A stretch of DNA of 64,000 nucleotides, taken from the NCBI RefSeq assembly GCF_013343235.1, contig NZ_CP040094.1, positions 2,914,501 to 2,978,500 on the forward strand, given 5' to 3'. This DNA is from Nostoc sp. TCL240-02 (GTDB lineage Bacteria; Cyanobacteriota; Cyanobacteriia; Cyanobacteriales; Nostocaceae). Of this stretch, positions 10,827 to 12,854 are shown piece after piece; the first letter of the stretch is position 1, and every line of letters starts with the position of its first letter. The notes beneath the pieces were generated by a model. The model had not been told where the DNA came from. It ran no database searches and was given only the letters and a program-made list of their open reading frames with translations. The position numbers and the translations under genes were made by a program.

Positions 10827-12854
10827 ATGCCAATGAAGTTGTTTAAGTGCGACGAAACTATCCCCGAACGGGAGAAGCACATATATATTAAAGAGAAAGG
10901 AGAAGATACAACCCAGTTTCTCCCTAGCGCCCACGTCGAAACCATTCCCGGCTCATTATCTGAACGCGGATGCAGTTATTGTGGTGCAAAGCTAGTAATT
11001 GGTGGTGTTCTCAAAGACACTATTCAGTTGATACATGGGCCTGTAGGCTGTGCTTATGACACATGGCACACCAAACGCTATCCCAGCGACAATGGCAACT
11101 TCCAACTCAAATATGTCTGGTCATCGGACATGAAGGAACAGCACGTTGTCTTCGGTGGTGAAAAGCTGCTGAAAAAAGCGATGCTGGAAGCCTTTGCAGA
11201 ATTTCCTGACATCAAGCGGATGATGGTGTACACCACCTGCTCTACTGCTTTGATTGGCGATGATATTAAGCCTGTAGTTAAAGAAGTCGAAAAAGAACTC
11301 GGTGATGTCGATATCTTCACCGTCGAGTGTCCCGGTTTTGCTGGGGTGAGTCAATCCAAAGGACACCACGTATTTAACATGGGGTGGATGACGGACAAGG
11401 TAGGAACTTATGAGCCAGAAATTACCAGCCCATACACGATTAATGTGATTGGTGACTACAACATTCAAGGAGATACTTTTGTCCTTGAAAAGTATATGGA
11501 AAAAATGGGCGTGCAAATTATTGCCCATTTTACTGGTAATGGGACTTATGACTCATTGCGTGGGATGCACAGAGCGCAGTTGAATGTGACCAACTGTGCC
11601 CGTTCTGCTGGATATATTGCCAATGAGTTAAAGAAAAAATATGGCATTCCCCGGATTGATGTGGATACTTGGGGTTTTGACTATGCTAAGGAAGGGTTAC
11701 GCAAAATCGGGGCTTTCTTTGGGATTGAGGATAGAGCCGAAGCGGTGATTGCTGAAGAGGTGGCTAAATATGAATCGAAGTTAGCTTGGTATAAGGAGCG
11801 CTTGACTGGGAAAAAGGTCTGTATTTGGACTGGTGGCCCACGTTTGTGGCACTGGACTAAAGCCTTAGAAGACGATTTGGGAATGAAAGTGGTGGCGATG
11901 TCGTCCAAGTTTGGACACCAAGAGGATTTTGAAAAGGTAATTGCCAGAGGTGAAGAAGGGACTATCTATATTGATGATGGCAATGAACTTGAGTTCTTCG
12001 AGGTGCTGGAGATGGTCAAGCCTGATTTGGTGTTGACTGGACCACGGGTGGGTGCTTTGGTGAAGAAGTTGCATTTGCCTTATGTGAATGGTCATGGCTA
12101 CCACAATGGCCCTTATATGGGTTTTGAAGGTGCGGTGAATATGGCGCGCGATATGTACAATGCCATTTACTCCCCTTTGATGAAGTTGGCTAAGGATGAC
12201 ATCCGTGGTCAGCAAAATAAAACTGTTATCTCTGAAGAAAATAGGAAACTTCAGGAGAATGAAGTACAACAATCGAAATCTATTGATATTACATCTACCG
12301 AAGCGATGCCTACGGCGGTAAACTACGCAGCAGTTGAAAGTTCAGACCTTAATACTCAACCATTGCTAATACTTGATAATCAACCATTACTTCAGGAGAA
12401 TGAAGTACAACAATCGAAATCTATTGATATTACATCTACCGAAGCGATGCCTACGGCGGTAAACTACGCAGCAGTTGAAAGTTCAGACCTTAATACTCAA
12501 CCATTGCTAATACCTGATAATCAACCATTACTTCAACGGCAGCAAATTGGCGGGGAAATCTCTGCATTTTTGGAGCAATTGCCTAAATACTTAGGTAGCT
12601 TTTCCACGGAGCACCAAATGCCAATTATTTGTTTTGCTACAATTATTACAGCGACTATTGCAGTTAAGATAATTCTAGCTGTATTAGATGTAATAAATGA
12701 AATTCCCCAGTTAAATCTAGTTTTTGAGTTGACTGGAATTGGTTACTTAATCTGGTTTGTTTTCCGATATCTATTTAAAGCTTCTACTCGACAAGAATTA
12801 GCTGCACAAATTAGTTTTATCCAAAAAGAAATTGTCGAGGGACAAGATTCATAA
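10827..12854 (+). CDS. vnfD: VnfD (V-nitrogenase alpha subunit) fused to a CAAD membrane domain
   Basis: The ATG at 10827 (GGAG 9 bases upstream) gives MPMKLF, the usual VnfD start; an in-frame TTG at 10806 is less likely. Residues 1-~465 are a full VnfD. P-cluster ligands C49, C75 and C138, cofactor ligands C257 (NCARSAGY) and H423 ([10 protein letters not shown]), Q176/H180 (SQSKGHH) and the carbonate-binding loop TGGPRL (335-340) all occur at the positions of the Azotobacter protein. Residues 475-568 are two 47-residue linker repeats. Residues ~575-675 form a CAAD domain with two transmembrane helices (~599-623 and ~632-650) and the typical [14 protein letters not shown] and [13 protein letters not shown] anchors some cyanobacterial aminoacyl-tRNA synthetases to thylakoids. 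In Anabaena variabilis VnfD is instead fused to VnfG. No vnfK follows. Membrane tethering is inferred. Confidence 0.93.
12249..12530 (+). repeat. Two 141-base direct repeats in the VnfD linker
   Basis: The copies 12249-12389 and 12390-12530 abut in frame and differ at one base that I can see (the codon for L versus P in [16 protein letters not shown]). Each contains GCGATGCCTACGGCGGTAAA (12303 and 12444), a variant of the dispersed Nostoc repeat GCGATGCCTACGGCGGGCTA, read in frame as [10 protein letters not shown]. Confidence 0.95.

What the first reader, a model, noticed from the sequence alone, without database searches (positions are those of the whole stretch)
10827..12854. VnfD fused to a CAAD thylakoid-anchor domain instead of VnfG
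The first ~465 residues keep every VnfD ligand (C49, C75, C138, C257, H423) and the TGGPRL carbonate loop at Azotobacter numbering. The C-terminus is a CAAD domain with two predicted membrane helices ([23 protein letters not shown]). CAAD is known from cyanobacterial aminoacyl-tRNA synthetases bound to thylakoids, and the known Anabaena fusion is VnfD-VnfG. A nitrogenase alpha subunit carrying its own membrane anchor would be a new architecture, perhaps placing the enzyme near photosystem I or ATP synthase in heterocysts, or making a VnfD homo-oligomer or scaffold.
Basis: partly seen in the sequence, partly recalled or inferred. Interest (0 to 1): 0.92.

Follow-up and report, generated by a model that had tools for sequence, protein, structure and literature searches.

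The report
Vanadium nitrogenase subunit with membrane anchor
Some cyanobacteria carry a second copy of the vanadium-nitrogenase catalytic subunit whose tail is a membrane-anchor domain; this was already noted in print in 2018, and the sequences suggest that the two copies are kept alike by gene conversion, perhaps so that part of the enzyme can be tied to the membrane.

Summary
Window 10827-12854 is one open gene of 675 residues: a complete VnfD (TIGR01860, 979 bits, cut-off 823; all five ligands), a linker, and a CAAD domain at 587-670 (81 bits, cut-off 30.7). It is not an assembly join: 31 further database proteins carry the tail, and 12 of 19 vnf-bearing cyanobacterial genomes examined have the fusion. 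It is also not new: PMC5987646 (2018) reports a VnfD duplicate with C-terminal CAAD in lichen Nostoc. It does not replace VnfDG: a vnfDG-vnfK cluster lies about 53 kb away, frameshifted by one base in this assembly. What I found no report of: (1) the CAAD groups with stand-alone CurT-like proteins, not the synthetase insert; (2) 7 of 34 linkers scanned still hold a decayed VnfG, so the gene arose from vnfDG; (3) in 5 of 5 genomes with both copies readable the VnfD domains pair by genome, while the CAAD tails fit one family. Gene conversion thus seems to keep one catalytic sequence on two tails; here 1,885 bp, upstream region included, are identical bar one base. Most likely role (inferred): docking part of the V-nitrogenase on heterocyst membranes.

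The parts
10827..12854 (+). vnfD-CAAD gene, 675 aa plus stop
10827..12206 (+). VnfD catalytic domain, residues 1-460
   Evidence: TIGR01860 979.2 bits against cut-off 823.1; ligands; 5n6y_A collinear 1-466
12207..12584 (+). linker, residues 461-586; sits where VnfG follows in VnfDG; no VnfG signal left here
   Evidence: P0001 E 0.81; relics in 7 of 34 relatives' linkers
12248..12535 (+). 141-bp unit, two tandem copies, 99% matches, inside the linker
   Evidence: number of units differs between relatives
12585..12836 (+). CAAD domain (PF14159), residues 587-670, CurT-like
12624..12686 (+). hydrophobic segment 1, residues 600-620
12717..12776 (+). weaker hydrophobic segment 2, residues 631-650
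10334..12218 (+). block identical to the vnfDG copy (ORF pieces G000:C1:2870403-2872411, -) and its upstream region: 0 mismatches, one 1-base gap; about 493 bp upstream and VnfD to residue 464
8889..9788 (-). nitrogenase iron protein gene (called vnfH here by position), divergent from vnfD-CAAD
   Evidence: TIGR01287 400.1 bits against cut-off 394.35
6803..8083 (-). HTH plus PBP-like regulator; the name VnfR is by position and recall

Best explanation
vnfD-CAAD is a second, membrane-tethered isoform of the V-nitrogenase alpha subunit. SHOWN by sequence: relatives trace it to a vnfDG gene whose VnfG decayed while a CurT-type CAAD became the C-terminus; in several genomes the catalytic half is identical or very close to the resident vnfDG in a way best explained by gene conversion, and in this strain and 210A the upstream region is too; the CAAD tail is under purifying selection among close Nostoc. 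INFERRED: it is made together with vnfDG in heterocysts without Mo, folds as VnfD, pairs with VnfK, most simply as a mixed tetramer with one VnfDG and one VnfD-CAAD, and the CAAD helices dock that enzyme on thylakoid or honeycomb membrane near ATP and reductant supply and near the oxygen-consuming oxidases.
For: VnfD equivalog score and ligands: each ligand is kept in every fusion row that covers it (30, 32, 32, 34, 35 of 36 rows), and 281 of 293 positions invariant in 14 VnfD/VnfDG are invariant in the fusions too. VnfD-domain dN/dS 0.021-0.068 in 15 of 15 fusion pairs. Within-genome pairing in 5 of 5 genomes; one clade of fused copies rejected, p-AU 3.4e-9. Fused CAADs as one clade not rejected, p-AU 0.516. 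VnfG relics in 7 of 34 linkers, E 3.5e-8 or less, against a best of 1.3e-3 in 1,700 shuffles. CAAD tail among own, 210A and NMS4: dN/dS 0.02-0.09, with NIES-2108 0.06-0.16; own/NMS4 and 210A/NMS4 Fisher p 1.6e-6 and 6.1e-8 on rounded counts. Of 12 genomes with the fusion, 11 also have a VnfG-bearing ORF. It lies beside vnfH in own, 210A and NMS4 and downstream of vnfH on the same strand in Brasilonema CT11. In the literature the ValRS CAAD targets membranes, binds ATP synthase subunits, and ValRS gathers at heterocyst poles (PMC4893482, passages).
Against: I saw no protein, transcript or localisation data for it. Between more distant members the CAAD tail has dN/dS 0.28-0.91 and up to 1.53 (G399/CT11), much looser than VnfD, so the anchor may be weakly constrained; CurT-B (0.14-0.38) and the VnfG tails (0.17-0.44) are loose too. 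The protein lacks VnfG, and I saw no clear free-standing VnfG: one search gives one VnfG ORF per genome, several of them short pieces I did not inspect further. 7 of 19 vnf genomes show no fusion, though some are drafts or MAGs. In Fischerella no vnfH was seen beside the fusion in the 12 kb read (L122). The CAAD groups with CurT-like proteins, so anchoring is not its only possible use. The AlphaFold model is poor (mean pLDDT 49) and gives no support.
Confidence: 0.5

Rival explanations
1. A membrane-bound assembly or holding platform rather than an enzyme: lacking VnfG, it binds VnfK or FeV-cofactor as an apo- or low-activity form and hands over to VnfDG.
For: No VnfG in cis. VnfG is linked to forming functional dinitrogenase (title of Chatterjee 1997, seen only in the reference list of PMC3578447; details recalled).
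Against: Cluster and cofactor ligands are kept, and VnfD-domain dN/dS (0.021-0.068) is like that of VnfDG copies (0.018-0.062); but gene conversion alone could give this.
Confidence: 0.2
2. A nearly neutral duplicate: its VnfD half looks conserved only because vnfDG overwrites it, and it serves at most as a spare copy for repair of vnfDG.
For: Within-genome VnfD identity; loose CAAD evolution between distant members; patchy presence, 12 of 19 genomes.
Against: CAAD under purifying selection among close Nostoc. Fischerella keeps an open fused VnfD with dS 1.03 from its vnfDG and dN/dS 0.04, that is, without recent conversion.
Confidence: 0.15
3. The CAAD works mainly as a CurT-type membrane-shaping module, and VnfD is cargo that makes this membrane change depend on the V-nitrogenase regulon.
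For: The CAAD groups with stand-alone CurT-like proteins.
Against: A regulon promoter on a plain curT copy would do the same; the full catalytic domain is kept.
Confidence: 0.08
4. Assembly join or frameshift between vnfD and a separate CAAD gene.
For: The two VnfD copies are 1.9-kb near-identical repeats, a known hazard for assemblers.
Against: 31 of 33 protein hits carry the tail; the complete fused frame occurs in Nostoc, Fischerella and Brasilonema assemblies; the identical block ends at residue 464, with different DNA beyond it.
Confidence: 0.02

Closest known systems
VnfD-CAAD of lichen Nostoc 210A, 213, 232 (Gagunashvili and Andresson 2018, PMC5987646)
   Same: Same architecture: VnfD duplicate with CAAD at the carboxy end. 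The 210A gene is L010 here, 99.1% identical in VnfD and 98.9% in the CAAD tail.
   Different: The passages read describe lichen Nostoc and liken the CAAD to synthetase insertions; further genera, VnfG relics, CurT affinity and gene conversion come. The paper's supplement could not be read here, so part of this may stand there.
VnfDG fusion of Anabaena variabilis and other cyanobacteria
   Same: Same VnfD; in this genome identical DNA to residue 464 apart from one base.
   Different: Tail is VnfG there, linker plus CAAD here; no PF03139 hit in P0001.
CAAD-bearing aminoacyl-tRNA synthetases (ValRS and others; PMC4893482)
   Same: An enzyme given a PF14159 domain.
   Different: Here at the C-terminus; in the newly found synthetases of that paper internal (passages). 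CAAD sequence separated from the six synthetase rows at 100/100.
Stand-alone CurT-like CAAD proteins (two in this genome)
   Same: 53% and 46% identity to the CAAD tail; grouped in the tree.
   Different: Open frames of 145 and 155 aa with no enzyme domain attached.

Membership tests
V-nitrogenase alpha subunit (VnfD) | TIGR01860 equivalog score over cut-off | tested here: met
   979.2 against 823.1
V-nitrogenase alpha subunit (VnfD) | P-cluster Cys and cofactor Cys/His ligands | tested here: met
   C49, C75, C138, C257, H423
V-nitrogenase alpha subunit (VnfD) | Partner VnfK encoded in the genome | tested here: met
   TIGR02932 893.5 against 873.95 at L044:6506-8017; not adjacent to this gene
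V-nitrogenase alpha subunit (VnfD) | Assembly with VnfK and N2 reduction | not testable with these tools
   needs biochemistry
Cyanobacterial VnfDG fusion | C-terminal VnfG domain (PF03139) | tested here: not met
   no Pfam hit; E 0.81 with a VnfG profile and filters off
CAAD domain (PF14159) | Profile score over gathering cut-off, near full length | tested here: met
   81.4 against 30.7, positions 1-84 of 85
CAAD domain (PF14159) | Two membrane helices | tested here: inconclusive
   600-620 strong, 631-650 only marginal by hydropathy; the low-confidence model shows helices 594-623 and 628-673
CAAD domain (PF14159) | Thylakoid insertion | not testable with these tools
   needs fractionation or imaging
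CAAD aminoacyl-tRNA synthetase | Synthetase catalytic domain | tested here: not met
   only PF00148 and PF14159 in P0001
CAAD aminoacyl-tRNA synthetase | CAAD groups with synthetase CAADs | tested here: not met
   tree of 79 rows, synthetases split off at 100/100; few columns, six synthetase rows only

The most novel reading that the evidence does not exclude
One catalytic sequence, two tails: recurrent gene conversion holds the VnfD of vnfDG and vnfD-CAAD identical while the tails stay different, so a cell can build a V-nitrogenase with one VnfG and one membrane anchor and dock it on heterocyst membranes beside ATP synthase and the oxidases. If the frameshift in this strain's vnfDG is real, VnfD-CAAD is its only intact VnfD and the enzyme here would be wholly membrane-bound and VnfG-poor.
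Probability: 0.3. Interest if true: 0.78.

Novelty: new member of a known kind. Interest (0 to 1): 0.52.

Why it matters
Nitrogenase is, as far as I recall, treated as a soluble enzyme. A membrane-anchored isoform kept in step with the VnfDG form by gene conversion would make subcellular placement of N2 fixation directly testable: delete the CAAD and measure V-dependent fixation under oxygen or light stress. V-nitrogenase genes are reported complete in 97 of 146 lichenized Nostoc genomes (PMC12416817, passages). It also warns that draft assemblies break at vnfD and may hide or misassign copies.

Tried and rejected
Assembly join: rejected by relatives. Synthetase origin of the CAAD: not supported. 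Independent CAAD fusion in each lineage as the reason why VnfD domains pair by genome: disfavoured, because fused CAADs fit one clade, share linker motifs and have between-genus dS of 0.18-0.44 against 0.84-1.12 for stand-alone CurT-A in the same genomes. I read this as exchange of the tail between genera, but about 63 synonymous sites are few, tail GC3 is low (0.24-0.26), and the VnfG tails, also short, sit between (0.47-0.80). Regulator site: the palindrome at 10631 gave 4 matches at up to 3 mismatches against 2.2 expected, so no claim. Frameshift control: ilvD in the window is also broken, but a copy over the cut-off lies elsewhere, so it does not tell error from mutation. AlphaFold on 26 rows: mean pLDDT 49, not used, no fold search made. 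No solved structure matched the CAAD profile at E 0.01; the first row of that alignment begins with M where the protein has L. Dropped rows: P0010 and L014 had no junction motif in the linker scan (34 of 36 scanned); P0023 was mislabelled by my length rule and corrected; the CAAD tree used 79 distinct rows of 99 hits; B12 was dropped from the CurT control; CT11 is absent from the CurT-B and vnfH tables. Of 20 handles two pairs show the same contigs and positions (G363/G394, G384/G396), leaving 18 plus own; they were picked because they hold VnfD matches, so 12 of 19 is not a prevalence. Searches ended in my own script errors; the parts that failed were redone in 48 and 51.

Full report
What is there. 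The ORF at 10827-12854 reads through without a stop for 675 residues. Residues 1-460 are a VnfD: TIGR01860 scores 979.2 bits against a cut-off of 823.1, while ANFD (713.4 against 873.8) and NIFD (391.5 against 653.55) miss theirs. Residues 1-466 align to 1-466 of the V-nitrogenase alpha chain of PDB 5n6y. Residues 587-670 are a CAAD domain, 81.4 bits against 30.7. Between them is a linker with a 141-bp unit in two tandem copies.

It is real. A protein search with residues 440-675 gave 33 hits, 31 of them with CAAD. A genome scan brought loci with the complete fused frame in Nostoc, Fischerella muscicola PCC 7414 and Brasilonema CT11, and contig-edge pieces of it in a Rhizonema MAG and other drafts. 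Family searches over 20 handles (18 distinct genomes), with own added, find the fusion in 12 of 19 genomes and a VnfG-bearing ORF in 18 of 19; the exception, NMS9 (G400), is a MAG whose contig starts inside the gene. These genomes were picked because they hold VnfD matches. In a sample of 388 genomes of the order 6 have a VnfD over the cut-off.

It is not new. [quoted passage not shown] 'CAAD' plus 'nitrogenase' gave 7 papers, of which I looked into that one and PMC11500504; 'vnfD' plus 'Peltigera' gave 8. 'Nitrogenase, gene conversion, cyanobacteri, vnf' gave 0. The library is open-access text only, and supplements were not read.

The canonical copy. The genome is one 7.89-Mb contig. On the other strand, about 53 kb away, lie vnfDG, vnfK (over its cut-off) and two further nitrogenase-like genes. 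That vnfDG is split by a one-base loss in a run of six A; the 16 other copies printed keep the frame there. I cannot tell error from mutation.

Gene conversion. Window 10334-12218 is identical to the vnfDG copy, 1,885 bp with no mismatch and one 1-base gap, from about 493 bp upstream of the start to residue 464; beyond both ends the sequences differ. Strain 210A shows the same block between its two copies at 99.84% (2 mismatches, 1 gap), while the fused gene here is 95.5% (3,397-bp alignment) and 93.6% (1,883 bp) identical to the two 210A copies. Within-genome dS of the VnfD domain is 0.000 (210A), 0.003 (G265), 0.206 (CT11) and 1.03 (Fischerella). On a DNA tree fused and unfused copies pair by genome in 5 of 5 genomes, and one clade of fused copies is rejected, p-AU 3.4e-9. 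The fused CAAD tails, in contrast, fit one clade (p-AU 0.516). In Fischerella the two copies are old sisters, so conversion there is not recent.

Origin. The CAAD tails group with stand-alone CurT-like proteins and are cut off from the six synthetase CAADs at 100/100 (99 columns, many forks unresolved). A VnfG profile finds decayed VnfG in 7 of 34 linkers (P0019, P0021-P0025, P0032), E from 2e-19 to 3.5e-8, against 1.3e-3 for the best of 1,700 shuffles; the scanned linkers of sources named Nostoc, and this one, show none. So the gene most likely came from a vnfDG whose VnfG part eroded. In three strains without the fusion (JL34, Desmonostoc, N. calcicola) vnfH faces vnfDG-K; in own and 210A vnfH faces vnfD-CAAD and vnfDG-K lies elsewhere, as if the segment between the copies had been inverted or the copies had swapped flanks (inference).

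Selection. VnfD domain of the fusions: dN/dS 0.021-0.068 over 15 pairs. CAAD tail: 0.02-0.09 among own, 210A and NMS4, 0.06-0.16 with NIES-2108; Fisher p 1.6e-6 and 6.1e-8 for two pairs on rounded counts. Between more distant members it is 0.28-0.91 and up to 1.53. CurT-B (0.14-0.38) and VnfG tails (0.17-0.44) are looser than VnfD as well. Between genera the tail's synonymous distances (0.18-0.44) are below those of CurT-A (0.84-1.12) and of the VnfG tails (0.47-0.80); own against CT11, 12 of 63 synonymous differences in the tail against 40 of 70 in CurT-A, p 7e-6; own against Fischerella, 20 of 63 against 37 of 69, p 0.014. I read this as tail exchange between genera followed by loose evolution; it also weakens the case for a tightly defined job of the anchor.

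Mechanism. A VnfD that keeps its ligands, shares its upstream region with vnfDG and in several strains sits by vnfH most likely joins the same enzyme. vnfDG of Anabaena variabilis is heterocyst-specific and Mo-repressed (PMC4284476, passages). The CAAD of ValRS is reported to target membranes and bind ATP synthase subunits, and ValRS gathers at heterocyst poles (PMC4893482, passages). Terminal oxidases are in the honeycomb membranes (PMC6616624, passages). A mixed tetramer with one VnfG and one anchor would place the enzyme there. The sequence evidence shows a conserved gene and its history; expression, partners, location and activity are all inferred.

Noticed in passing
L044:8404-10412 (G000:C1:2870403-2872411, -): The canonical vnfDG is split into two frames by a one-base loss in an A-run; error or mutation not settled.
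   Followed up: partly
window 28594-32677: A NifN-NifE pair (both over NCBIfam cut-offs) with a nitrogenase iron protein gene over the nifH cut-off, and a second PBP-like regulator at 33212-34345.
   Followed up: partly
L044:2972-4363 and 4819-6342: The two genes behind vnfK, where vnfE and vnfN are expected, score far below the NifE cut-off (133 and 170 against 505 bits), yet lie behind vnfK in other strains too.
   Followed up: no
window 10564-10579 and 10631-10646: Two related dyads upstream of vnfD. By eye the second is recognisable in 13 of 16 upstream regions aligned; not in the fused copies of Fischerella and Brasilonema CT11 nor in Fischerella vnfDG. Possible operator or RNA hairpin; chance not excluded.
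   Followed up: partly
window 35192-36945: ilvD broken into two frames; a fragment of another ilvD lies at L044:2006-2458, and a copy over the cut-off at G000:C1:5722172-5723791.
   Followed up: partly
L132 (G399:C120:4000-8500): An arginyl-tRNA-synthetase-like ORF of 684 aa (my reading of the sequence) with a CAAD, in a genome that also has the VnfD-CAAD fusion.
   Followed up: no
L038/L040 and L039/L042: In two draft MAGs the contigs with the CAAD tail and with the VnfG tail start at the same VnfD residue (386; 433), as expected when assemblers break at a repeated vnfD. The short overlaps are 96.5% and 99.0% identical.
   Followed up: partly
window 61655-63910: A ribonucleotide-reductase-like protein in two adjacent ORFs (name recalled from the sequence, not searched).
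   Followed up: no
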